DNA from: an uncultured bacterium
Lineage (GTDB): Bacteria > Elusimicrobiota > Elusimicrobia > Elusimicrobiales > Elusimicrobiaceae
Reading direction: 5' to 3'
Length of the DNA: 64,000 bases
NCBI GenBank assembly: GCA_949291515.1
Contig: CASEVY010000007.1
Span: 248,001 to 312,000 of the forward strand
Position numbers and translations under genes: made by a program. This document shows positions 15,757 to 33,779 of this stretch, piece by piece (the first letter of the stretch is position 1; the number at the start of each line of letters is the position of its first letter). The notes under the pieces were generated by a model. It searched no databases. It was not told where the DNA came from and saw only the letters and a program-made list of their open reading frames with translations.

Positions 15757-15813
15757 TGTATCGAAAAGTTTAGGCCATAATTTTTATGTCTTCACAACGT
15801 TTATGGCGGGGGT

Positions 15814-16608
15814 TTATGTCTTCAAAGACATAATCCCTGTCGTCATATTTTGGCCGTATACGGGTTCTATTTGCATATAGTAGTTTGATTGAAAGGCTCT
15901 CATATTTCGGCCTTGCCCCGCGTCCAAAGGCAGCCCGCAGTTGATAAGACGCCTTTTTTCGTCGCGGATTAAAAATTCGGGATTAAGTTTTTGAAATGAA
16001 ATTTTTCCTTTCTCGGGTTCAATGCCGTAATAGTAAGTTTTTTTGTATTGTGGCAAAGATTTTGCTTCGGAAAGGCTTCTGGCGCGTTTGTATAAGGAGA
16101 AGGCTTCGTTTTTTCCTGTTTGGCGGCGACAGATATTTGCCGTCCTATTCGCTGATTGTTTTTGAGTATTGCTTCGTACTCTTTTTAAGTGTATTGTACT
16201 TTTCTTTAAGCGCTTTTTCCTCTTCGTTTTCCGTTCTTTTTTACTCTCTTCCAGTTTTTGAGCCGATGAATGGAATTGTCGTATATTCGTTTAGGCGGTA
16301 TTATTGGGGGCTTATTCTGGTATTGTCGGCCGCGGAGAGATAATTTTTTCGTCGAAAAAAGAATGTTCAATCTCTCGGGAGATTAGTTTGTTTTTTGTTT
16401 CCGACATTTTTTGCAGCAAAGTTTTTGCCTTTAGGAAATCTTTGGAGTTTATTTCCGCCGAATTTCCTTTAATTCCCCGAGGAGAGATATGCGCGTTTTC
16501 GGCAAGCGCGGCGGCCGGCGTCGCAAAGATAAAAGAAAAATGTAAAAGCCAGCAGTTTTTTAATAAATAACCTATATGTTGTAATATGATATCAGGCCTT
16601 AACGCCAA
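15814..16608 (-). pseudogene. Decayed gene for a secreted coiled-coil-like protein
   Basis: Between pgm and purB the minus strand holds protein-like pieces in different frames. A signal-peptide-like N-terminus (16608 down to about 16540) runs into a Lys/Glu-rich helix that meets TAA at 16312 and another in-frame TAA at 16291. A strongly coiled-coil-like stretch (RTENEEEKALKEKYNTL and onward, about 16240-16150) is open only in a shifted frame. The original frame then resumes for the last 80-100 codons to 15814. Even the signal peptide reads better with a frameshift (KKLLAFTFF then SFIFATPAAALA). No family was recognised. The pattern fits a gene disabled by several frameshifts, though two short real genes cannot be fully excluded. 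Confidence 0.55.
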
Positions 16609-19285: not shown

Positions 19286-21073
19286 ATGAAATCCTATGCC
19301 GTTGACAGTATTTATGCTTTTATCATAATAGTGGCAGTATTCCTGGTTCTGCCTTTCTTCGTGCCGATGCAGGAGGAAGAATATTTATCCGAGCCGGTCG
19401 GCGAATATAGTATAGAGGAAGAGAAACCCGAAATTTTTACTAGAATAATCGACAGAGTATCTTCCTTTTACAGATTAAAGAAAAAGAAAAAAGCCGTACT
19501 ATCCGAATCTTTGAGAGAAGAATCTTCCGCAGATAAGAAAGAACTATCCTCCTCCGAAAAAAGCGCTTTGAAAGCAGAGGGCCAGGCGGCAGGCTCAAGC
19601 GCGAGAATGTCCGGCGAAACCCTCCGCTCGCAAGATCTCCAAACTAATGGCGAAGGCGGCCGGCGCGGCAGGAACGCGGCCTCTTTGCCTGATATGGCGG
19701 AGCTCGACGGGAAAAGATATCCGATAATGCCGGATCCTTATGGGAACAAATATGTTATAGCCAAAGGCGGTCCGATAGCGCTTAAAGATTTTTTGGCCAA
19801 AGGCGGAAGAATAGTAAAGCCTATGTATAACTATGATGCGGGAAATGATTTCCCTGGCGATATTGCAGGCGGGAATATCGGCTCTGGCGGCAATGGCGGA
19901 CGCGTAGGCGCTAAAGGAAATGCCTCCGCCCAATCCTACGGCGAATTGGCGTCCTATAAAACGAGAGGGGGCGGTAAAATCAGCGGATTTAATCAAGGTA
20001 AAACGGCGGATTTAAACGACGAAGAATACGCTGCCAATCAAGGCGGAACGGGCGGCCGTAAAGCGGGATTTGATTTGAGCGGATACGATTTTTCCTCGGG
20101 TGAGAGTTTTAACGAACTGCGCCAAAATTTATCAGCCAAAAGCGGCGGCGGTTCCAAAGGCGACAGCGCAGAAGAGAGAGAGAACAGAACTCCAAAGGTC
20201 TATAAACTGCAAAATACGAAACCTTTTGTCAGCGAGAACGCCGTAGGCGTTTCCATACAAAATGAAGAGGACGGCATATCGCTGGATATAGGCGAAGGCG
20301 GCGCCTCGGAGGATAGCTTTGGTTTTGATTCCGGCCCCGGCGGGGAAATCGGCTTTGAGGAACAAGAACCTCTTGATGGCAAGAATGTGGTGTCAAGAAG
20401 CATAGAGGCCGGTTATGAGAACTCTTTGGGTATAATACCGGAAAATGCGGATACTCGCAAAGCGATGACGCGAGAGCTCCTGGGCGATTCGGCCTTTGTC
20501 GGCCGTTCCGAACAAGGACGGGTAAGCGATCCCTGGATATTGCCAAACAATATAGACAACGGCCCCGGCAAGGAGTTTTTTGAGGCCAACAGGGACGTAC
20601 TGCTCGGAAGCGATGCGGTAAGTTTCAGGGAATGGGAAGAGAATGATATTTATTACGATAATGTCCGCGGCGAAATAGAAACGGCTACTAACGGTGCGGT
20701 TACGCCGTTGGTTATGATAAACGGGCAAAAAGGGCCGTTTACCATGCAGGTTATGCCTGAAAACAGCTACTATTACAAAGTGACGTCCAATTTGCTTAAC
20801 AATAAAGTCCGAAATGTGGACGAAAACGGGGAAGTCGATTTAAACCGGATAGACAGAAACAGAGTCTTGGTCGTAGTGCCGGAGCGGCCTCTGGCAGAGA
20901 ATTTGAGGAAAGACGGCTATAAGGTAGCCATTTTCGAAAAATACATAGTGACCCCCGGCAATTTAAAGAATTTCTATGATCAAACATCCAGTGCCGTAAA
21001 AGATATAGAAGCGGGGAAGAAGGCTGAGCACGAAGCCAAAAAACAGGATATAGCCCGCTCTTTAAAGATCTGA
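19286..21073 (+). CDS. Anchored Gly/Ser-rich protein, tandem paralogue 1
   Basis: 595 residues, not recognised. One N-terminal membrane segment (about 9-26) with no cleavage site suggests a signal anchor with the bulk outside the cytoplasm. An acidic stretch and a juxtamembrane motif (50-69, EIFTRIIDRVSSFYRLKKKK) follow. Residues about 75-430 are low-complexity, rich in Gly, Ser, Asn and Glu, and probably disordered. The last ~120 residues are ordered, with the motif RVLVVVPERPLAENLRKDGY near 526-545 shared with the next two large genes. A GGAGGG ribosome-binding site precedes the ATG. It is the first of three homologous genes. No catalytic motif is visible; a structural or surface role is only a guess. 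Confidence 0.75.
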   Translation: MKSYAVDSIYAFIIIVAVFLVLPFFVPMQEEEYLSEPVGEYSIEEEKPEIFTRIIDRVSSFYRLKKKKKAVLSESLREESSADKKELSSSEKSALKAEGQAAGSSARMSGETLRSQDLQTNGEGGRRGRNAASLPDMAELDGKRYPIMPDPYGNKYVIAKGGPIALKDFLAKGGRIVKPMYNYDAGNDFPGDIAGGNIGSGGNGGRVGAKGNASAQSYGELASYKTRGGGKISGFNQGKTADLNDEEYAANQGGTGGRKAGFDLSGYDFSSGESFNELRQNLSAKSGGGSKGDSAEERENRTPKVYKLQNTKPFVSENAVGVSIQNEEDGISLDIGEGGASEDSFGFDSGPGGEIGFEEQEPLDGKNVVSRSIEAGYENSLGIIPENADTRKAMTRELLGDSAFVGRSEQGRVSDPWILPNNIDNGPGKEFFEANRDVLLGSDAVSFREWEENDIYYDNVRGEIETATNGAVTPLVMINGQKGPFTMQVMPENSYYYKVTSNLLNNKVRNVDENGEVDLNRIDRNRVLVVVPERPLAENLRKDGYKVAIFEKYIVTPGNLKNFYDQTSSAVKDIEAGKKAEHEAKKQDIARSLKI

Positions 21074-21108
21074 ATTGGGCCCTAAGACCTATGTGTTTTT
21101 GGGCCTAA

Positions 21109-21131
21109 AAACCCTTGTTTTACAGGGGTTT
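21109..21131 (+). terminator. Weak terminator after paralogue 1
   Basis: A 10-bp stem AAACCCTTGT/ACAGGGGTTT (one wobble) with a TTT loop is followed by an AT-rich, but not poly-T, stretch. Confidence 0.45.
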
Positions 21132-21202
21132 ATTTAATAGATTTTAATAATAGAAACAGTGTTTTTTGCGGCTTTGAAATTAAATTTACGGAGTAAGCGG
21201 AT

Positions 21203-21844
21203 ATGAAGAAAAAATTCCTGTATGTTTTGGCGTTTTCCATAATGTCGTTTTGTGCGCTGCCTGCCAATGCGGATTTGCATATGTATTGCAAGATAAACGG
21301 CGTGAAGTATGAGTTGGGCGATGTAATTAAGAGGTTTGGCAATTCAAGCAAAGCCGTTATCGGCTGCTGCGATTTGACTAAAGTTTGCGGACCCAATTAC
21401 ATATCCAACGTAGAAGGTTCCGAATATTTGCATTCTTTGAGCTTGATAGCTGCGAAATACAATCATTTGGGCTCGCTGAAATATCTTATAGACGTCAAGG
21501 GCGTAGGCTATGAAAGCTGGCCGATGAAGAAAGGCAGCGACGGTTATTACAGGGATTATAAAGACTATACCCAGCTTATGTATGCGGTAAGAAACGGCAA
21601 TGCTGAGATGGTGGAATATCTCTTGAAAAAAGGCGCAAGCCCAACGCTTAAAAACAAAGACGGGAAGAACTCTTTTGATTATGTCGGGTCAAATGGCCAA
21701 ATAAGGGAAATACTGGAAAAAAGGTTGTATTCTTTTAAACTTGACACGAAGTATAAACAAGAGATTATAGACTTAAAAAACGGTAAATATGACGAAATTT
21801 TTGCCGGTTTTATGAAGTTGGTAGATTTTGACGATAACATATAA
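21203..21844 (+). CDS. Secreted ankyrin-repeat protein
   Basis: 213 residues with a clear Sec signal peptide (about 1-23, ending PANA). The mature N-terminal part has a Cys cluster (CKINGVKYE, then GCC and VCG). Two to three ankyrin-like repeats follow; the best is YTQLMYAVRNGNAEMVEYLL with KKGASPTLKNKDGK, near residues 113-145. Ankyrin repeats bind other proteins. The location, between two of the three large anchored paralogues and on the same strand, suggests a periplasmic partner for them. No ATGA overlap occurs, but gaps are short. The Cys residues may form disulfides. Confidence 0.7.
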   Translation: MKKKFLYVLAFSIMSFCALPANADLHMYCKINGVKYELGDVIKRFGNSSKAVIGCCDLTKVCGPNYISNVEGSEYLHSLSLIAAKYNHLGSLKYLIDVKGVGYESWPMKKGSDGYYRDYKDYTQLMYAVRNGNAEMVEYLLKKGASPTLKNKDGKNSFDYVGSNGQIREILEKRLYSFKLDTKYKQEIIDLKNGKYDEIFAGFMKLVDFDDNI

Positions 21845-21873
21845 CCTCAAATAAGAATAGGGAGGAGGCGGCT

Positions 21874-23880
21874 ATGAAGAGTAAAAAAAGCGGTGGCATA
21901 TTTATATGGATTTTTGCCGCGGTAGCCTTGTTCTTGGCTGTTCCGTTTTTGTTCCAAGAGGAAACGAACGGAAAACGTGGCGGCAAGATGTCGATAGATG
22001 GCGAGGGTCTTTTGCCTGTCGTCTCCTCCGAGAATCCCTTAACCAAATATATTAAAAGGCTTGCGGACTTTTACGGCTTTAAAAAGAAGGATTCCGGACG
22101 GAAGTCTTTTGCCAAAAATGATGTATATTCCGATGACGAATTGATGTATATGGAAGAAGGGTTCGGCGCTATGTTTGCGGCGCAGAACAAATCAGATTCC
22201 GAGGCCAAGCCCGCAAAGGGCGGGCAGGAAGTTTCCGCAGAACAAATTGCCTCTATCAGGGCGGCCTATTCCAAGGCGGCCGAAGTGTCTCTTAAAGACG
22301 GCACGGTCCGTACAGAGAGCGGGCTTACGATAAAACCGTCGCAAGACGGCTACTCTATAGAGGGTAAATTTTATAAAAACGGGACATACCCTTCCTTAAA
22401 GAACAGGCGCGAGATAGAACGCGCTTTAAGCAAATTTCATAAAGAGAAAGCGGCGCAGGAAGGTTTAACTGCGGCATATGTACGCAATTCGGACGGCAGT
22501 CTGTCTGTGAAATATATTTCTCCTAATATGTTGGATTCTAAAAGCAGGAGTTTGTACGCTTCCGGGAAAAGAGATATCGGAGACGATTATTACCGCGGGG
22601 CGAGAATATTATCCAGGAATGTTTCTTCCGGGGAGTCTTCTTCTTCTGGTTCTGAGCGCCGCGGATATCTTTCCAGCGGCAGTATCGATTCTGCATACGA
22701 CAGCATATCCGAGCGTCTGAAGGAGCATTTTGACGAGGACGACAGCCAAGGGGCTTCTTCCGAGAGGGAGGAAGAACGAGAAGAGAGCCGCAATGATAAA
22801 GAGGAAAATCTTTCTCAGGAACTGATAGCAAATTCTAACCGCGCGCCGGTCAGCTTGCTGATAACTTCGCAATTAAGGGAAGCTCCGAACAAAATACCTG
22901 ATTCCAAATATTTGGATGCGCCCAGAGTAGCGCTGAAACTTCCCAATACCAATGCCAATATCAGATCTTTAAATGATCTGCTGGCGAAATACGGCATAAC
23001 AAATACTTTAAGTTTTGAAGAAATGCAGCTTCCCAATATAGCGCCCGGCACAAGCAGGGAGCAAATCCGCGAGATAATGTCGGAGTGGGGCAAGCATCTG
23101 CAGGCGTTCAAATCTGAAGACGGGCTTTTAAGGGTTTTCTCTCCGACGATGATACCGGATACGGTTTTTACCGGCGGGAACAATGATCCTTATATGTATG
23201 TTGGTTATCCGAGAGTTCCGTATATGGACGTAGACGGTTCGGGCCAGCCTGCGATTACAAGTTTTTCGGAAGTGTTTCTTAACAGGACGGGTTTGGCCAA
23301 TATGTTTGACGCCATGAGGGATTCCGAAGGTGAAAGGCTGGACACTTCGGAATTGGAAGATCGCTATTTGGCATTGGATTCGATGCGCAATGAAAACAAT
23401 AAATATTTGCAAATGCTCGGCCAAAATGACGCCATAAGCAACAAAATGCCTAAGGTTGTGTTCTATTTGGGAAAACTAAGACGGAGCGAGGGCAATGTGG
23501 CCGTAGCTTCGCCGTCATCTTTCTTATACGTATACGCACCGAATATGGCGCCGGATTTTGTAGTTGACGGCGGTACGGATTCTTCTTACAGGGAGATGTC
23601 GGCCGCGGCGTTTTTGGACAATGTCAACAAACGCGGCAGCAACAATATTGTTATAGTTAATGATGAACGCCTTAAGGAAACGCTTAAAAAAGCAGGGGTA
23701 AAAAACGTTTCCGTCATAGAAACGGACAGATTGTCTTCCGGTACGCCGGAAGACGTGGAATATGTAATAGGCGCGTTGAAAGAAGTGGTGGCCCAGAGGG
23801 TAATGTCCGATGAGGAATTAAAACAAGAATTTATTAAGGCTATGACTGACGCCAGTAAAAAAGAAAAGGGCGGCAAATAA
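21874..23880 (+). CDS. Anchored Ser/Glu-rich protein, tandem paralogue 2
   Basis: 668 residues, not recognised, with the same plan as its neighbours. A membrane anchor lies at about 9-27. The juxtamembrane motif (54-73, NPLTKYIKRLADFYGFKKKD) lines up with those of the flanking proteins. A variable, charged and Ser-rich middle (about 75-330) includes an acidic SEREEEREESRNDKEE run. The C-terminal half is ordered. Its last domain has strands around residue 470 and the motif NIVIVNDERLKETLKKAG near 591-608, matching paralogue 1. GGGAGGAGG precedes the ATG. It starts 29 bases after the ankyrin gene. Function unknown. Confidence 0.75.
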   Translation: MKSKKSGGIFIWIFAAVALFLAVPFLFQEETNGKRGGKMSIDGEGLLPVVSSENPLTKYIKRLADFYGFKKKDSGRKSFAKNDVYSDDELMYMEEGFGAMFAAQNKSDSEAKPAKGGQEVSAEQIASIRAAYSKAAEVSLKDGTVRTESGLTIKPSQDGYSIEGKFYKNGTYPSLKNRREIERALSKFHKEKAAQEGLTAAYVRNSDGSLSVKYISPNMLDSKSRSLYASGKRDIGDDYYRGARILSRNVSSGESSSSGSERRGYLSSGSIDSAYDSISERLKEHFDEDDSQGASSEREEEREESRNDKEENLSQELIANSNRAPVSLLITSQLREAPNKIPDSKYLDAPRVALKLPNTNANIRSLNDLLAKYGITNTLSFEEMQLPNIAPGTSREQIREIMSEWGKHLQAFKSEDGLLRVFSPTMIPDTVFTGGNNDPYMYVGYPRVPYMDVDGSGQPAITSFSEVFLNRTGLANMFDAMRDSEGERLDTSELEDRYLALDSMRNENNKYLQMLGQNDAISNKMPKVVFYLGKLRRSEGNVAVASPSSFLYVYAPNMAPDFVVDGGTDSSYREMSAAAFLDNVNKRGSNNIVIVNDERLKETLKKAGVKNVSVIETDRLSSGTPEDVEYVIGALKEVVAQRVMSDEELKQEFIKAMTDASKKEKGGK

Positions 23881-23928
23881 TTATATCAAGCGCGGCCGTT
23901 TAATATAATTGTAGTAAAGAGGGTAAAT

Positions 23929-25968
23929 ATGTCTAAGGGTATTATATTAAAGATATTACTTTGCGGATTTGTGGTGTTTTTGCTTCTTCCGGCGGTTTTT
24001 GACGAAGAAGAGAAGGCGCCGGCCACCATTCGTCCTTTCGAAGGCGCTACCGAATTTAATCCAAGTGTATACGACGGCGAAGAGAGCCTGCCGATACTGG
24101 AAGGCGCCCCGGAAGAAGAGGGGAATGTCTTTACCAGATACGCGAAAAAATTTAAGAAGATGTACGGCAGGGCATTGTTCGGTTCGGCTTCTCAGAACGA
24201 GCAATCGTATGAAGCCGCCGCGCAAAACGATTTGGATAACGGCGACGAAGAATTATATTATGCCATGGCGGCATTATTTAGTTCGGGCAGCTCAGGCGGT
24301 GCGGCAGTGGGCGGTGAAAGATCCTCTTATGACAACGGCGCCGCTTCAAATAACGTCAAGGCGCTTGCTTATGACAAAGAATATTTTAAAGGTGTTCCGT
24401 CCCCGGTAAAGCAGACGGTCCACGACAATGCTCCGGTAAAAGGCCTGTATGAAACGTCTTCTACGGAACCTTACGAAGCCAGGACTAAAGCAAAGCAGGT
24501 ATACAGCAACGTAATGAATAAGGTTGACAGGACCGTTCCAAAAGCCGCGAAATCGCAGTCCGCTTTTGGCGATTTGGAGGGGGAAGGCGAAATTTCGTCA
24601 TATAAAGGCGGAGTTTACGGCTCTTTTGATAATTCGGTCGTTGGGGATATCGGTACCGATAGTATGGCGCCGGATTTGGCCGACGGTTTAATTTTAGCGA
24701 GCGGCAAACGCGTTAACCGCGAATATACCGGGATATCCAGCCCTCGGCGCGGTTCGACAGGCGGGAGCAAAGGGGGAAGCTATAATTCTTACGGCGGTGG
24801 AGCGGCCAGAGAGGATTTAAACGGTTGGGGTGCGGGTTTTGGTGAAAGTTTTGAAGCGGCTGCCGCCCGTACGGAAGAAAATGTTTCCATTGCGGCCGGC
24901 ATAATGAAAGATGAACGGCGCGAAGAGCAAGCAGCCGGCGGCGGTAATGGCGGAGCAAATTCCCAAGGCGGTAATGCCAAGGCTGAAGATGGTTCTTCCC
25001 AAGGGGGAGAAGCAAATTACTCCGGCGGGGCCGGTAAACAGAACGGAGGAGAGGCGTCTGCGGAAAACTCCTCAAGCGGGAGTTCCGAAGATGTCAGCCC
25101 TGCAGAAGAAAGCGGCGATACAGAGAGCGATGGCCAAACTCAGGGGGCAAACGGTTCCAATCCGAACAATCCTTTATTGGGCAGGGATACGCTGTTCGAT
25201 CAAGCTAAATACGATTATGTACTGCATAAAACTTGTATGGACGGTTCCAATTCCAATATGGCGGAGAATAGGAGCCTGCCCTTTGCCAGGGATATAGGAT
25301 ACTTGGGTTCAGATGGTAATGGAGCGAACGGATTTTCAAATGCCAATCCTGACAAGATAGAGCCTCTTTGCACAACTCCGTTGGAAGGAGCGCAGTCTGT
25401 AGAAGATGCAATAAACGGCAAGAGGATAGTTGTTGATTTGGGCCTTGCCCGCGGAAAGGACGGCAATTTATATAGAGCCGTACCGACGTATTTGGCGCTT
25501 TCGAGCAAGGGGCTTGGTCAAATAGGCATACTCAATTATTACGAAGATGCCGACGGCGATATAAATATGGGCGACCTGTTCAAGGGCGCGAGTATTTCGG
25601 AGTTCGCCTCGGTAGCAAACAATAAAGAGAGTATCGTTATAACGGTTTCGCCCGCGGTGGCGCGAGCATATTTGGGGAAATCCGTTCTTATAGAGGAAGG
25701 CGATTTGGAAAGTAAAAGCGGATTAAAGTCTCTTGCCGAGAAATTGAACAATCTCCCCGCGGAAAGAGAACGCATATTGGCTATTGCAAGCCAGCCGCAG
25801 GCGGCGCAGCGACCTCAGCCGAAGAAGAATACTCAAGCGGAAGAAAAAGCCCGCAAAGAAGCTGTCGACAGGGCGGATATCGAACAGAAGAAGGAAGAAA
25901 TAAAAGACAACAGGTTTTTTGGCAAACTAGCGGATTTGTTTGGCGGCAATAAGAGAGGAAGAAAATAG
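23929..25968 (+). CDS. Anchored Gly-rich protein, tandem paralogue 3
   Basis: 679 residues. The N-terminal anchor (about 5-24, containing Cys12) is followed by an acidic stretch and the juxtamembrane motif at 66-85 (NVFTRYAKKFKKMYGRALFG). The long middle (about 90-410) is very rich in Gly, Ser, Asn and Ala (for example GGGNGGANSQGGNAKAEDG) and surely disordered. The ordered C-terminal part (about 420-600) contains two Cys (HKTCMDG, EPLCTTP) and a diverged version of the shared motif (KESIVITVSPAVARAYLG). A basic, Gln/Lys-rich tail follows. The family is not recognised. The next gene, malic enzyme, follows closely but is probably unrelated. Confidence 0.73.
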   Translation: MSKGIILKILLCGFVVFLLLPAVFDEEEKAPATIRPFEGATEFNPSVYDGEESLPILEGAPEEEGNVFTRYAKKFKKMYGRALFGSASQNEQSYEAAAQNDLDNGDEELYYAMAALFSSGSSGGAAVGGERSSYDNGAASNNVKALAYDKEYFKGVPSPVKQTVHDNAPVKGLYETSSTEPYEARTKAKQVYSNVMNKVDRTVPKAAKSQSAFGDLEGEGEISSYKGGVYGSFDNSVVGDIGTDSMAPDLADGLILASGKRVNREYTGISSPRRGSTGGSKGGSYNSYGGGAAREDLNGWGAGFGESFEAAAARTEENVSIAAGIMKDERREEQAAGGGNGGANSQGGNAKAEDGSSQGGEANYSGGAGKQNGGEASAENSSSGSSEDVSPAEESGDTESDGQTQGANGSNPNNPLLGRDTLFDQAKYDYVLHKTCMDGSNSNMAENRSLPFARDIGYLGSDGNGANGFSNANPDKIEPLCTTPLEGAQSVEDAINGKRIVVDLGLARGKDGNLYRAVPTYLALSSKGLGQIGILNYYEDADGDINMGDLFKGASISEFASVANNKESIVITVSPAVARAYLGKSVLIEEGDLESKSGLKSLAEKLNNLPAERERILAIASQPQAAQRPQPKKNTQAEEKARKEAVDRADIEQKKEEIKDNRFFGKLADLFGGNKRGRK

Positions 25969-26000: not shown

Positions 26001-27449
26001 ATGGAATTAAAATTTGATTTGAGTAATATGGAAGAGTTTTTGCCGAAGGAGTTTGACGCCGAAAAGCGGCTTAAGGCAAAAACTCTTTTCTTTAAGAAGC
26101 TGGCTTTGGCGGCGCATAGCTTTTACGGCGGTAAGATGGCGTCTATGCCGAAGGCCGGGCCTATGTCGCCCGGCTGGATGAACGTATGGTATACGCCTGG
26201 AGTTTCGGCTGTGTCTACTGCCATAAGGGAATCGGAGGCCAAATCTTACGATTTAAGTTCGCGCGGCAATAGAGTTTTGGTATTGAGCGACGGCACACGA
26301 GTATTGGGCGACGGCGATTGCGGCGCGGCTGGCGGGCTTGGCGTAATGGAAGGCAAAGCTATGCTTATGAAGTATTTGGGCGGCATAGACGCCGATGCGG
26401 TATGTATAAACAGCCGCGACGGAAAAGGGTTGCCTTCGGCCGAAAAGATAACAGATTTCGCAAATATGATAGCGCCAAGTTTCGGCGCTATCAATTTGGA
26501 AGACATCAGCCAGCCTAATTGCTATAAAGTGCTAGACGAACTAAGGAAAACTTGTCCCATACCGGTATGGCATGACGACGCTCAAGGTACGGCGTGCGTT
26601 ACCTGCGCCGCTTTGATAAACGCTTTAAAACTTGCCGGCAAGAAAATTAATGATATAAAGATAGTCCTTTACGGGGCCGGCGCGGCCAACTCTACTGTGG
26701 CCAAATTCCTTATGGCTATGGGGGTTGCGGGCGGCAATATTATAATGTTTGACAAAAGCGGAGCTTTGAGCAAGAAAAGAACGGATTTAAGAGATAACCC
26801 GGATTTTTACAGACAGTGGGATTTATGCCTAAAGACAAACGCCGCAAATATTGAGAATGAACAATCCGCTTTTAAAAATGCCGATGCCGTTATAGCTTTG
26901 TCAAAGCCGGGGCCAGGCACGATAAAAAGCGAGTGGATAAGACTTATGGCGCCAAAAGCGATAGTATTTGCATGCGCCAATCCGGTGCCGGAAATATCGC
27001 CGGAAGAGTCTTTGAAAGCGGGCGCTTTTATAGCGGCGAGCGGGCGGGGCGATTTTCCAAATCAGGTAAACAATTCGCTTTGTTTCCCGGGTATATTGAA
27101 AGCGGCGCTTTTGTGCAGAGCGCGCGGTATAACCGACACAATGGCGCTGGCGGCGGCGAAGGCTATAGCTGAATGCGCGGAGCTTAAGGGTATTAACCCA
27201 AAAAGGATACTGCCAGATATGTATGACGCGGAATTGTATCCTATGCAGGTACGAGCCGTAGTCGAGCAGGCCGCTAATGAGGGTTTGGCCGGGCTGCCGA
27301 TAACTCCGCAGGAGGCTTACTCGAAAGCAAAAAATGACATAAAAGCGGCGCGGGCGCTGAGCGACGTTTTATACAGGGACGGCTATATTAAACAGATGCC
27401 GCTGTCAATAATAAAACAAGCCTTGCGGGAAACGCTTGAGGAAGTATGA
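26001..27449 (+). CDS. Malic enzyme, NAD(P)-dependent
   Basis: Oxidative decarboxylation of malate to pyruvate and CO2, or the reverse. The 482-residue protein has the malic N-terminal domain (YTPGVSAVSTAI near 64; LVLSDGTRVLGDGDCGA near 93-109), the HDDAQGTACV motif near 193 and an NAD-binding GAGAANSTVAKFL near 224. CANPVPEISP near 325 is typical of the bacterial MaeB-like group without the phosphotransacetylase domain. It overlaps the fumarase alpha gene by ATGA, so malate produced from fumarate can be passed to pyruvate. The start ATG has only a weak ribosome-binding site (AAGAAA). Confidence 0.93.
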   Translation: MELKFDLSNMEEFLPKEFDAEKRLKAKTLFFKKLALAAHSFYGGKMASMPKAGPMSPGWMNVWYTPGVSAVSTAIRESEAKSYDLSSRGNRVLVLSDGTRVLGDGDCGAAGGLGVMEGKAMLMKYLGGIDADAVCINSRDGKGLPSAEKITDFANMIAPSFGAINLEDISQPNCYKVLDELRKTCPIPVWHDDAQGTACVTCAALINALKLAGKKINDIKIVLYGAGAANSTVAKFLMAMGVAGGNIIMFDKSGALSKKRTDLRDNPDFYRQWDLCLKTNAANIENEQSAFKNADAVIALSKPGPGTIKSEWIRLMAPKAIVFACANPVPEISPEESLKAGAFIAASGRGDFPNQVNNSLCFPGILKAALLCRARGITDTMALAAAKAIAECAELKGINPKRILPDMYDAELYPMQVRAVVEQAANEGLAGLPITPQEAYSKAKNDIKAARALSDVLYRDGYIKQMPLSIIKQALRETLEEV

Positions 27450-28279
27450 GAATAATAAAAAGCGCGGAAATAAGAGATATGGTCGCCGCTCTTTGTGTGG
27501 AGGCGGCTTATAATTTGCCCGTTGGCGAAATAAAATTGTTGAAGTCCGCCATAAAGAAGGAGAAAGGGCTCGCCGCCAATTTGATAAACCTTATTTTAAA
27601 GAACGCGGAAATAGCCTCCAAAGGAGAATATCCCTTGTGCCAGGATACTGGCAGCGCCGTCGTATTTGCCGAAATAGGCGAAGAGGTGTTTATAGACGGC
27701 AATATAAACGAAGCCGTAAATGCTGGCGTCAGGAAGGGATATAAAGAGGGCTATTTGCGCAAGTCGATAGTATCGTGCCCGTTATTTAAGAGAATTAACA
27801 CTAAGGATAATACTCCCGCCGTTTTACATTTAAGCATAGTCAAAGGCTGTAAAGTAAAACTGAAAGTTTTGTTAAAAGGGGGCGGCGCGGAAAACGCCAG
27901 CAGGTTAAAAATGTTCACTCCTGCCGACGGCAAACGGGAAATAATAGACTTTATAAAGCAGAGCGTAAAGGAAGCCGGCGGCAAAGCGTGTCCGCCGTAT
28001 ATTCTGGGGATAGGCATAGGCGGCGATTTTGAGCAATGTGCTTTTTTGGCCAAGAAGGCGCTGACAAGAAATCGCGCACACTCAAACAAGAATTATGCCC
28101 TGCTTGAACGCGAAATATTGAAAGCCGTAAACTCTTTGGGGATAGGCGCGCAAGGCCTTGGCGGGAAAACGACTGCTTTGGCCGCCTATGCGGAAATAGC
28201 GCCTTGCCATATGGCCAGTTTGCCTGTGGCGGTAAATATCTGCTGCCACAGCCACCGAATAAAAGAGGGCGTAATATGA
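27446..28279 (+). CDS. Fumarate hydratase class I, alpha subunit
   Basis: Fe-S-dependent hydration of fumarate to malate. The 277-residue protein corresponds to the N-terminal domain of FumA (or TtdA). It has the cluster Cys in YPLCQDTGSAV near residue 55-65, a second Cys in VSCPLFKRINTKDNTP near 110, and the GIGIGGDFEQCAFLAKKAL segment near 190 with a third. The HSNKNYALLEREIL and GLGGKTTALA motifs complete the site. The oxygen-labile 4Fe-4S cluster fits an anaerobe. It is coupled by ATGA overlaps to the malic enzyme upstream and to the beta subunit downstream. A tartrate dehydratase role is possible but less likely next to malic enzyme. Confidence 0.9.
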   Translation: MRIIKSAEIRDMVAALCVEAAYNLPVGEIKLLKSAIKKEKGLAANLINLILKNAEIASKGEYPLCQDTGSAVVFAEIGEEVFIDGNINEAVNAGVRKGYKEGYLRKSIVSCPLFKRINTKDNTPAVLHLSIVKGCKVKLKVLLKGGGAENASRLKMFTPADGKREIIDFIKQSVKEAGGKACPPYILGIGIGGDFEQCAFLAKKALTRNRAHSNKNYALLEREILKAVNSLGIGAQGLGGKTTALAAYAEIAPCHMASLPVAVNICCHSHRIKEGVI

Positions 28280-28794
28280 AGAAGATTTCTCTTCCCGCAG
28301 ATAGAGCTGCGTTGGAAAAATTAAGAGCCGGCGACGCCGTATTGCTAAGCGCAACGATTTACTCTCTTAGGGATAAAGCGCACGCTTTGCTTTTGAAAAG
28401 CGGCTCCATTCCCGAATTTCTGCGAGGCGGCATAATATATTATATGGGCCCTACTCCCGCACGGCCCAATAAGGCGGTCGGCAGCTGCGGGCCGACTACA
28501 AGCGCGCGAATGGACAAATATACGCCTACAATAGTCAAAAAAACAGGTATAATTGGTATTATAGGTAAAGGCGAGCGCAGCGCCGCGGTAAACCGCGCGA
28601 TGAAAGGCAGGACTATATATTTTCTTGCCTATGCCGGTTTGGGCGCATTGTGCGCGCAGAGCGTTTTAAAAAGCGAAGCTGTATTGTATAAAGAATTGGG
28701 CGCGGAAGCGATTTTTAGGTTGGAAGTGAAAGACTTTCCGCTGATAGTATGCCAAGATCTTAAAGGCGATAATGTATACGGAGGAATAAAATGA
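28276..28794 (+). CDS. Fumarate hydratase class I, beta subunit
   Basis: 172 residues matching the C-terminal domain of class I fumarases. The signatures are LLSATIYSLRDKAHALL, GGIIYYMGPTPARPN and the SCGPTTSARMDKYTP loop. The start is placed at ATG 28276, overlapping the alpha-subunit stop; a longer frame from 28204 would cover the alpha gene. Alpha and beta together form the enzyme. The gene overlaps the next lipoprotein gene by ATGA, so an envelope gene set is translationally tied to a metabolic operon. Confidence 0.92.
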   Translation: MKKISLPADRAALEKLRAGDAVLLSATIYSLRDKAHALLLKSGSIPEFLRGGIIYYMGPTPARPNKAVGSCGPTTSARMDKYTPTIVKKTGIIGIIGKGERSAAVNRAMKGRTIYFLAYAGLGALCAQSVLKSEAVLYKELGAEAIFRLEVKDFPLIVCQDLKGDNVYGGIK

Positions 28795-29366
28795 AGAAGT
28801 CATTACTGTTTTTGATTGTATTGTGCGGCGCGGTTCTTTTCGGCGCATGCAGCGGCAATAAGAGGAATTCAAATTACGAAGAGGAACCTTATAATCGTTC
28901 CAAGAAGGCTTCCTACGAGAGCAAGATAAGGTATTCGGTATTTGCGCCTTTTATGTACGAAGATAAGTTCTACTCCTATTATGCTTTGGCCAAGAAAGTT
29001 TCCGGCCCGGATAATAAGGGGTGGTATGAGGTCGAATTTAAAAACGGGCCTAAAAAAGGCGAACGAATAAAAACGAAGAACGTTATCGTCAAGACGAGGC
29101 CGGCCGACGACTATGAATTAAAGAAAGGTTTGGTTGTTTTGGTAAATCATTGGAACCCCAGAACGCAGAATGACGAGAGCCGCACCGATATGTGGCGCAA
29201 AGGCGTAGTATATAATTTGGACGAACTCGATAAAGGCAAAGTGATGTTGGAGTTCCCTTACGACCGCAACGATTTTATGGCGACCAAAGAAGTGTATCTG
29301 CTGGACAATATAAGGCTGATATTGGAGCCCAAGGACGTGCGTGATCCTAGAATATTTTTAGATTAG
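28791..29366 (+). CDS. Lipoprotein of unknown function (first of envelope gene set)
   Basis: 191 residues beginning with a lipoprotein signal peptide; the lipobox LFGAC gives a lipidated Cys at about 20. The mature protein is strongly charged and appears mostly beta, with an SH3-like feel: WYEVEFKNGPKKGERIKTKN, then LVVLVNHWNP, then VVYNLDEL and VMLEFPYD strands. No family recognised. The GGAGG ribosome-binding site lies in the end of the fumarase beta gene. Five further envelope genes follow with almost no gaps. Confidence 0.7.
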   Translation: MKKSLLFLIVLCGAVLFGACSGNKRNSNYEEEPYNRSKKASYESKIRYSVFAPFMYEDKFYSYYALAKKVSGPDNKGWYEVEFKNGPKKGERIKTKNVIVKTRPADDYELKKGLVVLVNHWNPRTQNDESRTDMWRKGVVYNLDELDKGKVMLEFPYDRNDFMATKEVYLLDNIRLILEPKDVRDPRIFLD

Positions 29367-29370
29367 GGAT

Positions 29371-30069
29371 ATGTTAAGGAAGATATTTTTTGCTCTATCC
29401 GCTTTTATAATTTGCGGTATGCCCCTGCGGGCGATGCAGAGCGATACATATTTGATAGATACGCCTACGGCCGAAGTTTTGCCGCTTAGGGATTTAGGCG
29501 TAAGGACTCGTATTTTTACCGGCGGAGGCGTACTTGCCTATTTTGATTTTACGGTTATAAACCGCCTGAGCATAGGAGCGTCTTTAACTGCGGAACACTT
29601 GGTAGGGGAAAGCGATGAGGATATAAAACTTCTTGTCCCCGCGCTTCAGCTTAAGTATCGTCTGTATGACGGCGGAGATCATTTGCCTGCTTTTGCCATA
29701 GGTTTTGACAATCAGGGCTTTAAGTATAACCACGATTTGGACGAGTATGAGCAACCTGCGAAGGGGCTGTATTTGGCGCTAAGCAAGGAGGTGCTGATAC
29801 CCGGTTTGATGTTCAATCCCGGTTTAAACGTAACTGTTGACGGTTTTGAATTTGACAAATTGGCGGGATACATATCGGCCGCTTACAATATAAAAGATGT
29901 AGTTAATTTAATGTTCGAATGGGACAATATCCACTCGATAAAAGAGTCCAGACTAAACGGCGGGCTTAGGGTATATGTAACCGAAAATTTTTCTCTGGAT
30001 TTTGCGATACGCAATTTTAATCATAAAGCGGAGCGTATAGCGCAGTTTAAGTACAGCTGCAGCATATAG
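29371..30069 (+). CDS. Outer-membrane beta-barrel-like protein
   Basis: 232 residues with a Sec signal peptide (about 1-21). The mature protein begins with the phrase YLIDTPTAEVLPLRDLGV. Regular amphipathic strands separated by short turns follow, in a pattern seen in YjbH-like or OmpW-size barrels. Many strands have alternating hydrophobic residues, such as LRVYVTENFSLDFAIRNF near the end. The function is unknown. Its position, directly before a HAMP protein and a TolC-type channel, makes it part of the same envelope set. Confidence 0.65.
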   Translation: MLRKIFFALSAFIICGMPLRAMQSDTYLIDTPTAEVLPLRDLGVRTRIFTGGGVLAYFDFTVINRLSIGASLTAEHLVGESDEDIKLLVPALQLKYRLYDGGDHLPAFAIGFDNQGFKYNHDLDEYEQPAKGLYLALSKEVLIPGLMFNPGLNVTVDGFEFDKLAGYISAAYNIKDVVNLMFEWDNIHSIKESRLNGGLRVYVTENFSLDFAIRNFNHKAERIAQFKYSCSI

Positions 30070-30070
30070 T

Positions 30071-30520
30071 ATGGAAAGAATAAAGAAACCGTATAAACGC
30101 AGTATAATTTTTATTAAGAAGCATATGCAGTTGAAGTTCGTATTTTTGTCTTTGCTGCTTGCTCTTTTGTGCGTGGCGATGTGCACTTACGAATTCGTGA
30201 GTATGATACAGGCGTTTTTTAAGGCGCATCCTGTGTTGCTGCAGGAACTTATCGAGCAGAGTTCCGTCCTTATACCTATCTCCATAATGAAACTTGCGAT
30301 ATTTTTTGCGGTGATAGCCATATTGGCGGCAATTTTATCCAACAGAATAGCGGGGCCGTTATACAGATTTGAAAGCGTATGTAAGGAAGTAGCCAAAGGC
30401 AATTATAAAGTGCGGGTAAAGCTGCGCGACGGCGACGGTCTTAGAGGGTTGGAAAAAGAATTCAATGCTATGCTGGACAGCTTGGAACGGAAAGAAGGGG
30501 AATGTAAAGATGAGAAATAA
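30071..30520 (+). CDS. Membrane protein with a HAMP domain and no output domain
   Basis: 149 residues. Two membrane helices (about 20-42 and 70-93) enclose a short periplasmic loop. A HAMP domain follows (about 93-145): RIAGPLYRFESVCKEVAKGN, a connector VRVKLRDGDG, then the second helix ending LERKEGE. Sensor kinases or chemoreceptors would continue into an output domain, but here the protein ends. It may act as a signal adaptor or as a scaffold. It overlaps the TolC gene by 11 bases. Confidence 0.78.
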   Translation: MERIKKPYKRSIIFIKKHMQLKFVFLSLLLALLCVAMCTYEFVSMIQAFFKAHPVLLQELIEQSSVLIPISIMKLAIFFAVIAILAAILSNRIAGPLYRFESVCKEVAKGNYKVRVKLRDGDGLRGLEKEFNAMLDSLERKEGECKDEK

Positions 30521-31814
30521 AGCGGCGGCTCTTTTGCTCGCGATAATGACTTTTGCGTGTCTGGCCAGCGCGCAGAAATATCGTATAAAATATTCTGTAG
30601 ACGAGAAAGATCCTATTTCTTTGGAAAATGCCATACGTCTTGCGTTGGAGAACAACTACGAACTTTTGCTTACCGAGCAGGACGTGGTAATATCTGAGCA
30701 GCGGTTAAAGGAAGCCAAATTTTTATATTTGCCCGAGATAAGTTTTAACGCCGCGGCGACGGGTTACAATTTGGATTCGCCCATAGTTTTGCCCGACAGT
30801 CTTGGCCTTAGATATATAGCGCCGGCCAAGGACCACGATACGGATACTTTATTTTACGGTTTGGGCGTATCGGCGACGCAGTATTTGTATACCGGCGGGC
30901 GGATTTCCAGTACGGTAAGTATGGCAAAAGCCGGCCTTAAGGAAGCGATGAGCCGTTACGAAGCGGTAAAATACTCGGTAATATATCAAGTCAAGGAGGC
31001 GTTTTTCCAGCAGTTGTTTCTGCAGCGCCAAGAAGCCTTGCTGCAGGATATGATAAACCGAGTGGAAAAATATTTGCAAGGCAAAACATACAAACAGTGG
31101 GAAAGGGTGTTGATACAAGCCGAACGCGCAAAAATGAAGAGCAGGGTCAATGCTTTGAAGGAGGAATTGTCCTCGGCCAATTTAAAACTTATAAACGTAT
31201 TGAATAAAGAACTTAACAGCAAAGTGGTTATAAGCGGCGATTTTGACTTTAATCCGATTAACGTCGATTTGGCAAAAGCTACTTTGTGGGCTATGGAATT
31301 CAGGCCGGAACTTAAGAGCGCTTTGTACAAGCTGGAGATGGACAATATATCAGTCAAACTTTCGCTTGCGAGGCGCTATCCCAATATATTGCTCGGCATA
31401 GGTTATGACCGCCAGGGCGAGGACAATATAAACGATGAGAATATTCAAGCCACATTGGCTTTGAAACTTCCTTTCGGCTACGACTACGGCACACAGCTGA
31501 AACAGAAACGCGCGGAACAGCGCCAGAGCAATCTCAAGCGTGCGGCGATAGAAGACGCAATTCGCTCCGAGGTTTTGGAAGCCTACAATAATCTTATGTT
31601 TTGGCAGGAAGAGACCGCCGTCCGCATCGCTACTTGGGACACCATCAATAAAGAACTGGGCAATTTAAACTACAATACTTTGACTAAAGAAGAAGCCATA
31701 AGAGTGTTTTATTATTATTATGAAGCGGGCGTGGATTATCTAGAGGGTATAAAAGAACATATGTTGGCGATAGCCAAGTTGGAATTGGCTGTCGGACAAG
31801 ATATAAGAGAGTAG
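30510..31814 (+). CDS. TolC-family outer-membrane efflux protein
   Basis: 434 residues with a Sec signal peptide (about 1-21, ending CLASAQ) and two copies of the long-helix outer-membrane-factor repeat. SLENAIRLALENNYELLL near residue 40 opens the first repeat, and LAKATLWAMEFRPELKSALY opens the second, with barrel strands between. TolC trimers form the exit duct for export pumps or type I secretion. The start is chosen at ATG 30510 behind GGGGAA; an upstream in-frame start at 30465 lies in the HAMP gene. No inner-membrane pump or adaptor lies nearby, so the partner is unknown. Confidence 0.88.
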   Translation: MRNKAAALLLAIMTFACLASAQKYRIKYSVDEKDPISLENAIRLALENNYELLLTEQDVVISEQRLKEAKFLYLPEISFNAAATGYNLDSPIVLPDSLGLRYIAPAKDHDTDTLFYGLGVSATQYLYTGGRISSTVSMAKAGLKEAMSRYEAVKYSVIYQVKEAFFQQLFLQRQEALLQDMINRVEKYLQGKTYKQWERVLIQAERAKMKSRVNALKEELSSANLKLINVLNKELNSKVVISGDFDFNPINVDLAKATLWAMEFRPELKSALYKLEMDNISVKLSLARRYPNILLGIGYDRQGEDNINDENIQATLALKLPFGYDYGTQLKQKRAEQRQSNLKRAAIEDAIRSEVLEAYNNLMFWQEETAVRIATWDTINKELGNLNYNTLTKEEAIRVFYYYYEAGVDYLEGIKEHMLAIAKLELAVGQDIRE

Positions 31815-31819
31815 TTTTA

Positions 31820-32782
31820 ATGAAGTCAAAGACTATCAGAACAATCCTTTTCGCTTTATGTTTTTTTGCGGCGTCATATGTGCAGGGCGGGGTAATAAAC
31901 GAGAAAGAAGAAAACGATATCCTGCGCGAATTTTTATGGCGGGAATTTGTTTCTCTGCCGAAGGACAAACGCCCGAAGATAGGTGTTACGCTTTCGGCCG
32001 GCGGAGTCAGAGGGTTTTCCCACATCGGGGCTTTGGAAGTAATAAAAGCCAGCGCTTTGCCGATAGATTATATGTCGGGCACTTCGATGGGGTGTATAGT
32101 CGGCTCAATGTTCTCGGCGGGGGTAAGCCAGGCGCGTTTGCTGGATTTGGCGGAAAATCCTAAACTTTCCTATATATCAAAAGATCTTACGATACTGGGC
32201 GTTATCAAATACGTATTTGGCAACAGATTGTTTTCTTCGGAACAATTTCAGGAATTTATAGAATCGGAAATAGGCTCCATATATTACGAGGATCTCAATA
32301 TTCCCTTTGCGTGCGTTTCGGCAGATATTAAGACCGGTGAAAAGGTAGTCTTTAACAGCGGTCCTGTGGCTTTGGGCGTACGCGCGAGTATGAATTTGCC
32401 CGGCATTTTCGCCCCCGTGGAATATCGCCAGCGCTATTTGGTCGACGGCGGGGTGGTGGATTATATGCCGGTGGATTTGGTCAAAGAGATGGGGGCGGAT
32501 TGGGTGTTGGCGGTATTTTCTCTTCCAGATTATTCAAAGAGCGTGCCGACGACCATTTTGGGATATATCATACGGACCGGCGATTTGAGAGGCGCACTCC
32601 TTACGGAAAGCTCCGAAAAGAGCGCCAATTTCCTGATAGAGTCGCGTGTTGGCGATATATCCTCTTTTAATCCCGGCGAATCGTTAAAAGCTCTTGAAAT
32701 CGGCGCCAAATCGGCCTATACGGCATTGCCCTCGATGAAGGAGAATTTACTATTATATTCGGTGGATTATGTTTTTAAATAG
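31820..32782 (+). CDS. Patatin-like phospholipase, secreted
   Basis: 320 residues with a signal peptide (about 1-22). Patatin-fold catalytic signs are all present: the oxyanion loop SAGGVRGFSHIGAL near 58-72, the nucleophile Ser in GTSMGCIVG near 89-97, and the catalytic Asp in DGGVVDYMP near 211-219. It belongs to the RssA-like group and probably acts on phospholipids in the periplasm or at the outer membrane. It sits five bases after TolC and overlaps the TPR gene by 14 bases, so it belongs to the same transcript. Substrate not determined. Confidence 0.86.
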   Translation: MKSKTIRTILFALCFFAASYVQGGVINEKEENDILREFLWREFVSLPKDKRPKIGVTLSAGGVRGFSHIGALEVIKASALPIDYMSGTSMGCIVGSMFSAGVSQARLLDLAENPKLSYISKDLTILGVIKYVFGNRLFSSEQFQEFIESEIGSIYYEDLNIPFACVSADIKTGEKVVFNSGPVALGVRASMNLPGIFAPVEYRQRYLVDGGVVDYMPVDLVKEMGADWVLAVFSLPDYSKSVPTTILGYIIRTGDLRGALLTESSEKSANFLIESRVGDISSFNPGESLKALEIGAKSAYTALPSMKENLLLYSVDYVFK

Positions 32783-33779
32783 GGGATTTTTTATTGCGCT
32801 TGCCGCTTTATTTCTGTTATGGCCTTTCGCTCAAGGCAATGCCTTGTTTGGGATAAGCGCGCGCAATGCCCAAAACCAAATGCTGCGCGAAGCTGAAGAC
32901 GCATATGACAACGCCGAATATAAACGAGTGGAAGAATTGGGCAAAGAATTTTTGCTTAAATATCCTTCGGCATCAAAGAAGCGTCTAAAGAGAATGTATC
33001 TGCTTTTGGGCGATTCATACAAAGAACGCGGGCAATACGACAAGGCTCTGCTGACTTATAACGAGGCGGCGGAATTTTTGTCAAAAGACGAAGATATAAA
33101 TTTGGCTTTAGGCGGGATATATCTTATCGGCGGGCTGACGGATAACGCAAAAGATATTTTCAGGAAAGTTCTTGAGATAAATAAGGAAAATAAAGAGGCC
33201 CTTTTGGGAATGGCCAGAGCATACTATGAGGAAGGCCTCTTTTCGCGCGCCAATGTATTTTTCGAATATTACGGCCAAGCCGGCGGCGGAAAGGAAACCG
33301 CGGGTCCTTTTTATTATTATTATGCAATGTCTCAATATCTTGCGGACAATCAAGATGCGGCTCTTGATCTGGCTTTAAAGGCATTATCCGCGGAAGAAAC
33401 GGCCGATACCTTATTGCTGTTGGCAAAGATTTACAGAAACGCCGATGACGAGGAAAACGCTTGGCGCTATATAGACGCCGCTTTGGAAAAAGATCCTGCT
33501 CGCTACGACATTTATTTGACTAAAGCCTTATGGCTTTCTTTCGGCACCTTGGAGCAGACCAAACAGGCTGAGAAAATGGCCGATATCATACTTGAAAAAG
33601 ACAGCCGCGACAAATTGGCCCTGTTCATAAAATATATGTCTTTAAGAAAACGAGGCGGCGACAGCGCAAGGGCCGGGGCGTATTTAAAAACGATAATGTC
33701 GACTGAAGGCGATCAGTTTATGGATAAACTCGCGGCTAAACTTTATTATATGAATATGTCGGAAAAATCTCGTAAATAA
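32769..33779 (+). CDS. Secreted TPR-repeat protein
   Basis: 336 residues with a signal peptide (about 1-23, ending FAQGNA). The rest is made of tetratricopeptide repeats, some with the classic W/Y-G-A-Y pattern: YKERGQYDKALLTYNEAAEF, DNAKDIFRKVLEINKENKEA, ENAWRYIDAALEKDP. Six or more helical pairs are visible. Such periplasmic TPR proteins scaffold envelope complexes. It is the last gene of the 28.8-33.8 kb envelope set and is followed by a two-way terminator. Confidence 0.85.
   Translation: MFLNRGFFIALAALFLLWPFAQGNALFGISARNAQNQMLREAEDAYDNAEYKRVEELGKEFLLKYPSASKKRLKRMYLLLGDSYKERGQYDKALLTYNEAAEFLSKDEDINLALGGIYLIGGLTDNAKDIFRKVLEINKENKEALLGMARAYYEEGLFSRANVFFEYYGQAGGGKETAGPFYYYYAMSQYLADNQDAALDLALKALSAEETADTLLLLAKIYRNADDEENAWRYIDAALEKDPARYDIYLTKALWLSFGTLEQTKQAEKMADIILEKDSRDKLALFIKYMSLRKRGGDSARAGAYLKTIMSTEGDQFMDKLAAKLYYMNMSEKSRK

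What the first reader, a model, noticed from the sequence alone, without database searches (positions are those of the whole stretch)
19286..25968. Tandem trio of membrane-anchored, largely disordered proteins: a candidate undescribed system
Seen: three consecutive same-strand genes encode proteins of 595, 668 and 679 residues with the same layout. Each has an uncleaved N-terminal anchor, then a juxtamembrane motif near residues 50-85 of the form [F/L]T[R/K]-x-many-K/R-F/Y-Y. A long Gly/Ser/Asn/Glu-rich middle and an ordered C-terminal domain follow. Proteins 1 and 2 share V-h-V-V/N-x-E-R-x-L-x-x-x-L-+-x-x-G in that domain; protein 3 has a diverged version. Middles and lengths differ. I recognise no family. 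Inference: an ancient triplication with functional split, making a surface or periplasmic assembly whose parts are linked by flexible arms.
Basis: partly seen in the sequence, partly recalled or inferred. Interest (0 to 1): 0.75.

Follow-up and report, generated by a model that had tools for sequence, protein, structure and literature searches.

The report
Tethered orphan binding-protein-fold envelope family
Three related proteins, each tethered to the inner membrane by a long floppy arm, belong to an undescribed protein family found almost throughout one family of gut bacteria; their end domains have the predicted shape of nutrient-binding proteins but have no matching transporter, so they have probably been reused to organise the cell envelope.

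Summary
The three proteins are real and related, but the picture changes. (1) They are not strictly consecutive: an exported ankyrin-repeat gene (21203-21844) lies between the first and second. (2) The strongest shared part is the N-terminal anchor plus juxtamembrane segment (HHalign E 1e-6 to 1e-18). C-terminal kinship is clear by profile only for proteins 1 and 2; protein 3 joins them through its predicted fold. (3) They belong to a family present in 66 of 70 Elusimicrobiaceae genomes searched. It is usually a single gene at one conserved envelope locus, expanded here to four copies and expanded independently to three in the genome that looks like Elusimicrobium minutum. (4) The AlphaFold model of protein 2 (residues 335-645) matches class III periplasmic substrate-binding proteins (FhuD2, BtuF; Z 10.7-8.3, all 50 rows). 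The separate model of protein 3 points to the same superfamily. No sequence method sees this. (5) The genome has no canonical Peripla_BP_2 protein and no clear FecCD permease, so the fold looks orphaned. (6) Protein-1-type genes are followed by an exported ankyrin protein at nearly every locus, in several neighbourhoods. Best reading: inner-membrane-tethered, repurposed binding-protein-fold envelope factors, probably scaffolding or regulatory. The function is inferred, not shown.

The parts
19286..21073 (+). Protein 1 (P0001, class F1), 595 aa: TM anchor, juxtamembrane helix, small F1-type module (~res 130-180), long linker, C-terminal lobe
   Evidence: ORF; relatives 73-37% identical at the same place in 4 other species
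19310..19369 (+). TM anchor of protein 1 (res ~9-28), ending in the family motif FLxLP
   Evidence: alignment A3; F and P invariant in all rows
19436..19492 (+). juxtamembrane basic helix of protein 1 (FTRIIDRVSSFYRLKKKKK, res 51-69)
   Evidence: sequence; alignment A3
20648..21010 (+). C-terminal lobe of protein 1 (res ~455-575), homologous to protein 2 res ~527-645
   Evidence: HHalign F1a-F3 E 4e-6; alignment A4
21203..21844 (+). Exported ankyrin-repeat protein, 213 aa, signal peptide ending ANA|D, Cys-rich after it
   Evidence: Pfam Ank_5 3.8e-12; related genes follow F1 genes in other species
21874..23880 (+). Protein 2 (P0003, class F3), 668 aa
   Evidence: ORF; relatives in 16 of 18 genomes of the genus
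21889..21951 (+). TM anchor of protein 2 (res 6-26)
   Evidence: helix 6-26 in the AF2 model; alignment A3
22288..22539 (+). small ordered module of protein 2 (res 139-222), F3-type
   Evidence: pLDDT ~76-93; F3 vs F3x HHalign 6e-33
22540..22785 (+). disordered linker of protein 2 (res 223-304)
   Evidence: pLDDT < 50
22876..23808 (+). class III substrate-binding-protein-like domain of protein 2 (res 335-645): two alpha/beta lobes joined by long helix 492-516
   Evidence: AF2; Foldseek E 3.9e-4 prob 1.00; VIA-align Z 10.7 to FhuD2, all 50 rows one superfamily
23929..25968 (+). Protein 3 (P0004, class F4), 679 aa
   Evidence: ORF; relatives; two invariant Cys 436 and 481
23938..24009 (+). TM anchor of protein 3 (res 4-27)
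   Evidence: AF2 helix; alignments A2, A3
24520..25368 (+). long linker of protein 3 (res ~198-480), mostly disordered, one predicted helix 308-337
   Evidence: pLDDT mostly < 50; G/S/N/E-rich
25375..25788 (+). C-terminal lobe of protein 3 (res ~483-620)
   Evidence: pLDDT mostly 65-90; VIA-align rows all class III binding proteins, best HtsA Z 7.2
26001..28794 (+). malic enzyme and the two fumarase-subunit genes; between the family genes and the envelope cluster in genera g1 and g2, absent at this place in g6
   Evidence: Fumerase_C PF05683 for the last gene; malic enzyme and first fumarase gene named from their sequence and order; distribution
28791..33779 (+). conserved envelope cluster: putative lipoprotein (28791), putative outer-membrane protein (29371), TM+HAMP protein (30071), TolC-like OEP (30465), patatin (31820), TPR (32769)
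   Evidence: Pfam; same order directly downstream of the family gene in 10 of 10 g6 loci

Best explanation
The three genes are members of an undescribed, Elusimicrobiaceae-specific family of inner-membrane-tethered envelope proteins. Plan: cytoplasmic N-terminus, uncleaved TM helix ending in FLxLP, basic amphipathic juxtamembrane helix (SxNPL.. motif), a small class-specific module, a disordered leash, and a C-terminal domain with the class III substrate-binding-protein fold (full two-lobed domain in protein 2; apparently only the second lobe plus helix in proteins 1 and 3). Shown by computation: shared N-termini, conserved gene order, fold match, absence of the canonical partner transporter. 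Inferred: topology, and that the domain is an orphan binding protein reused as a periplasmic docking or regulatory head. The leash would let an inner-membrane-bound head reach peptidoglycan or outer-membrane partners, most likely products of the adjoining envelope cluster and, for the protein-1 class, the exported ankyrin protein encoded next to it. The ancestral state is probably one gene; duplication gave specialised classes F1 (ankyrin-paired), F3 and F4.
For: N-terminal homology of all classes. N-terminal profile hits in 66 of 70 family genomes, including 45 of 46 of genus g6, whose sequences were not in the profile; in all 10 g6 loci examined the hit sits at the same place: trypsin-like protease - family gene - lipoprotein - OMP-like - HAMP - TolC - patatin - TPR. 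Fold: protein 2 model pLDDT mostly 80-95 over 335-645; Foldseek E 3.9e-4, prob 1.00; Z 10.7 down to 8.3 at rank 50, all class III binding proteins. The separately aligned protein 3 model gives the same superfamily in its rows. Orphan status: no PF01497 match and only a sub-threshold FecCD match (E 4e-4) in the own genome; over the family, PF01497 in 4 of 67 genomes of the three genera that carry this family against 3 of 3 in the genera that lack it, and strong FecCD in 5 of 67 against 3 of 3. Ankyrin pairing of F1 in several distinct neighbourhoods. Precedent: mycobacterial FecB and LpqZ are orphan SBP-like proteins that bind arabinosyltransferases (PMC12802301). Two-membrane envelope supported by LpxB at 43465-44610.
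Against: No sequence method links the domain to known binding proteins: no Pfam hit in 28 members, no PDB sequence hit, HHalign to Elusimicrobiota PF01497 proteins no better than controls. Protein 3's model is weak overall (mean pLDDT 50, Z 7.2, Foldseek alone finds nothing). Protein 1 was not modelled. The C-termini of g2 and g6 members are not linked by sequence to those of this genus, so their fold is unknown and family unity there rests on the N-terminus and gene order. An unrecognised importer could use the domain. No experiment supports any function. Incomplete genomes may hide canonical transporters.
Confidence: 0.5

Rival explanations
1. Leashed ligand capture: the heads still bind a nutrient (heme, cobalamin, siderophore or another metal complex) and hand it to a non-FecCD importer such as the permeases that match FecCD only weakly. 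The multiple copies would give different specificities.
For: The fold is that of heme, B12 and siderophore binders. Weak FecCD-like permease matches exist in most genomes, including the own one (E 4e-4). Diversification by duplication fits specificity change.
Against: No transporter gene recognised next to the family genes in the loci read (not every neighbour was profiled). Proteins 1 and 3 appear to lack a complete first lobe, hence a full cleft. E. minutum-like G018 has no FecCD match at all yet three copies.
Confidence: 0.2
2. Structural tether: the fold is incidental, and the proteins act mainly as disordered inner-membrane to outer-membrane spacers (like TonB, TolA or Lpp-type spanners), with the C-terminal domain docking on the outer-membrane or TolC-like proteins of the cluster.
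For: TM-leash-domain plan; constant neighbourhood with lipoprotein, OMP-like and TolC-like genes over the family; linkers diverge freely while anchors are kept.
Against: No TonB/TolA domain or charged residues in the TM helix, no ExbBD-type neighbours recognised in the loci read. A conserved well-folded domain suggests specific recognition.
Confidence: 0.2
3. Ordinary lineage-specific hypothetical proteins with fast-evolving low-complexity middles; the fold match reflects a generic alpha/beta arrangement.
For: No sequence support for the binding-protein link; rmsd mostly 4-5 A; identity 5-14%.
Against: All 50 listed rows belong to one superfamily, rank 50 still Z 8.3 (typical for unmatched models 4-5), Foldseek E 3.9e-4, and two models made from different alignments agree.
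Confidence: 0.1

Closest known systems
Class III periplasmic substrate-binding proteins (FhuD2, BtuF, BhuT, HtsA; Pfam Peripla_BP_2 PF01497)
   Same: Predicted fold of protein 2 res 335-645: two alpha/beta lobes joined by one long helix; second lobe of protein 3
   Different: No detectable sequence kinship, no FecCD permease partner, TM anchor and long leash instead of a lipoprotein or soluble form, first lobe apparently missing in proteins 1 and 3
Orphan binding proteins repurposed in envelope biogenesis: mycobacterial FecB and LpqZ (PMC12802301)
   Same: SBP fold without an associated transporter; envelope gene context
   Different: Those are lipoproteins with known enzyme partners (AftB, AftA); here a TM-tethered family with a disordered arm, different phylum, no partner shown
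TonB/TolA-type envelope-spanning tethers
   Same: N-terminal inner-membrane anchor, long flexible periplasmic arm, small C-terminal domain
   Different: No homologous domain, no ExbB/ExbD or TolQ/TolR neighbours recognised; comparison is of plan only

Membership tests
Class III substrate-binding proteins (fold level) | two alpha/beta lobes joined by a single long backbone helix | tested here: met
   protein 2 only: Z 10.7-8.3, nearly all rows spanning both lobes, Foldseek prob 1.00; protein 3 second lobe and helix only, Z 7.2; protein 1 not modelled
Peripla_BP_2 (PF01497) sequence family | match to the family profile or significant profile-profile score | tested here: not met
   no match in Pfam scans up to E 1; HHalign to 20 Elusimicrobiota PF01497 proteins 0.012-0.57, as for controls
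Peripla_BP_2 ABC import systems | cognate FecCD-type permease in the genome or next to the gene | tested here: not met
   none recognised in the loci read; own genome only a sub-threshold hit E 4e-4; strong FecCD in 5 of 67 genomes of the carrying genera
Peripla_BP_2 ABC import systems | ligand binding in the cleft | not testable with these tools
   needs protein
Periplasmic (N-in, C-out) membrane-anchored protein | uncleaved N-terminal TM helix, C-terminal part outside the cytoplasm | tested here: inconclusive
   positive residues before and acidic after the TM helix, no AxA site seen, two invariant Cys in protein 3, exported neighbours; no topology predictor or experiment
TonB/TolA-type spanners | TonB_C/TolA domain and ExbBD/TolQR partners | tested here: not met
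   no such Pfam match in the three proteins or the profiled neighbours; partners elsewhere in the genome were not searched
Ankyrin-repeat protein (gene 21203-21844) | Ank repeat profile match above cut-off | tested here: met
   Ank_5 3.8e-12, 46.7 bits, cut-off 27

The most novel reading that the evidence does not exclude
A new trans-envelope system of Elusimicrobiaceae: several inner-membrane-anchored orphan binding-protein heads on disordered leashes, each class with its own membrane-proximal module and one class with a dedicated exported ankyrin partner, jointly dock on the outer-membrane/TolC-like/patatin cluster encoded downstream and organise envelope assembly or lipid turnover.
Probability: 0.25. 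Interest if true: 0.75.

Novelty: new variant of a known kind. Interest (0 to 1): 0.52.

Why it matters
Orphan binding-protein folds reused as envelope factors are known in a few lineages, notably mycobacteria. A family that is nearly universal in a whole bacterial family, TM-tethered, leashed and repeatedly duplicated would be a second, independent case in a two-membrane phylum whose envelope biology is almost unknown. It gives a testable handle (one conserved locus, a probable cultured representative, defined partner candidates) on genes that no profile library names.

Tried and rejected
Pfam and NCBIfam on the proteins: nothing for the three. PDB by profile: nothing. HHalign with canonical Elusimicrobiota binding proteins plus control families: no signal above controls. 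Foldseek alone on the protein 3 model: nothing significant; BFVD: nothing. BLAST of protein 1 outside the genus: nothing in 42 genomes, which first suggested a genus-restricted family; the N-terminal profile corrected this. Genome-contig scan with one protein gave one close relative only, which named the order Elusimicrobiales. Considered and dropped: TonB/TolA membership; pilus or secretion component (no neighbour or profile). One g1 row first grouped as F1 (L173) falls outside the F1 clade on a very long branch. Weak N-terminal matches in family f2 (E 1e-3 to 5e-3) were judged chance; one is an outer-membrane-type protein by eye. No paper on these genes was found in the library.
Full report
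WHAT IS THERE. The window belongs to a 1.5 Mb genome of the order Elusimicrobiales (a 73%-identical relative is recorded as an uncultured Elusimicrobiales bacterium). The three ORFs exist as described. Order: purB - purA - protein 1 - ankyrin - protein 2 - protein 3 - malic enzyme - fumarase subunits - lipoprotein - OMP-like - TM/HAMP - TolC-like - patatin - TPR. Gaps from the ankyrin gene to malic enzyme are 29-48 bases, which suggests one transcription unit (inference).

ARE THE THREE RELATED. I built separate alignments for each class from relatives in the genus and compared them with HHalign. N-terminal ~100 residues: all three classes are related (1 vs 2 1.8e-15, 2 vs 3 5e-12, 1 vs 3 9e-7; the F1b-F4 pair is weak at 0.01). 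C-terminal parts: F1-F3 4e-6; F3-F4 0.14; F1-F4 none. Against unrelated families from the same loci the best chance match was 5e-4, so F1-F3 is real and F4 is not linked by sequence. The small module behind the juxtamembrane segment is class-specific: F1 types match each other (9e-13), F3 types match each other (6e-33), F4 types match each other (9e-12), and none matches significantly across.

HOW WIDE. BLAST found relatives only in the genus. A profile of the N-terminal anchor found members in 66 of 70 genomes of the family: all of the genus, three of three in genus g2, 45 of 46 in genus g6, none in g3, g4, g5, and nothing convincing in the sister family. G018 in g2 is 1,643,562 bases in one contig, which from memory is the size of Elusimicrobium minutum Pei191 (identification by size, not proven). 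The g2 rows were in the profile, so their hits are circular; the g6 rows were not. In all 10 g6 loci read the hit lies between a trypsin-like protease gene and the same lipoprotein - OMP-like - HAMP - TolC - patatin - TPR series; malic enzyme and fumarase are missing there. This gene order is independent support that the weak N-terminal hits are true members. G018 carries three copies in tandem at this place, g6 mostly one. A tree of the N-termini puts the G018 trio in one clade (99/93) apart from the F1, F3 and F4 groups of this genus, so the expansions are independent; resolution is limited by about 100 columns.

THE FOURTH COPY AND THE ANKYRIN PARTNER. Another F1-type copy lies in the own genome beside a gene I read as malQ, followed by two ankyrin-type genes. 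At nearly all F1 loci with a readable downstream side the next gene, or in one case the next but one, encodes an exported protein of the ankyrin set. Ankyrin matches or clear profile kinship hold for most; for three species the neighbour (c32) has only borderline matches (Ank_4 0.013; HHalign 1e-4 to 4e-4 to two of the other sets), and one truncated neighbour was assigned by similarity only. The pair stays together in at least four different neighbourhoods, which argues for a functional pair rather than a fixed locus.

THE FOLD. The AF2 model of protein 2 (28 sequences) has mean pLDDT 72.8, with 310-668 mostly 80-95. Foldseek: five hits below 1e-3, all siderophore-binding proteins, best 3.9e-4, probability 1.00. 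VIA-align: FhuD2 Z 10.7, BtuF 10.1, RhuT 10.1, BhuT 9.9, down to 8.3 at rank 50, every row a class III binding protein. The protein 3 model, from ten F4-type sequences not used in the first alignment, is poor overall (mean 50) but mostly 65-90 over its C-terminal lobe; its VIA-align rows are again all class III binding proteins, best HtsA Z 7.2, though Foldseek alone gave nothing significant and Z near 7 can occur by chance. The order of strands and helices in protein 3 res 499-627 parallels protein 2 res 527-666. Protein 1 was not modelled; alignment A4 shows that it lacks most of the first lobe. I therefore place the domain at fold level only: sequence membership in Peripla_BP_2 was tested and not met.

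WHY 'ORPHAN'. The own genome has no PF01497 match and only a sub-threshold FecCD match. In genera carrying this family PF01497 occurs in 4 of 67 genomes and strong FecCD in 5 of 67; the three genomes of the genera without it have both. This reflects few independent events, so it is suggestive only.

HOW IT MAY WORK. Shown: anchor, leash, head, conserved neighbourhood, pairing with an exported ankyrin protein. Inferred: N-in topology, periplasmic head, docking or regulation rather than import. The closest functional precedent is mycobacterial FecB/LpqZ, SBP-like proteins without a transporter that bind arabinosyltransferases (PMC12802301). The main rivals are leashed ligand capture and a pure structural tether.

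NOVELTY. Family, plan and distribution appear undescribed in the libraries searched; the fold and the idea of repurposed binding proteins are known. Hence a new variant of a known kind, interest about 0.5.

Noticed in passing
window 15773-16596 (- strand): Remnants of a gene that is intact (528-604 aa) at the same place in relatives: matching pieces in different frames and about 240 residues of the middle not matched. The intact relative has no Pfam match.
   Followed up: partly
window 51716-53413: 565-aa protein with a LytB/IspH domain (8-281) followed by a C-terminal half with a sub-threshold UbiA match (E 9e-5); possible unusual fusion of two isoprenoid functions.
   Followed up: no
window 29371-30069 and relatives: 232-aa putative outer-membrane protein conserved over the family in the envelope cluster; only a very weak YjbH match in a g6 relative (E 0.024).
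   Followed up: no
genus g6 genomes, e.g. L158: The malic enzyme and fumarase genes that split the cluster in g1 and g2 are absent at this place, and malic enzyme was not found in the g6 genomes searched.
   Followed up: partly
L030 3095-5215 and L032 4628-6834: In two species the F1 gene is split into two adjacent ORFs (391+283 and 410+286 aa), separating the anchor half from the C-terminal half; split gene or sequencing error not resolved.
   Followed up: no
L125 5059-5466: A thioredoxin-like exported protein sits between the family gene and malic enzyme in one g2 genome, of interest beside the paired Cys seen in several family members.
   Followed up: no
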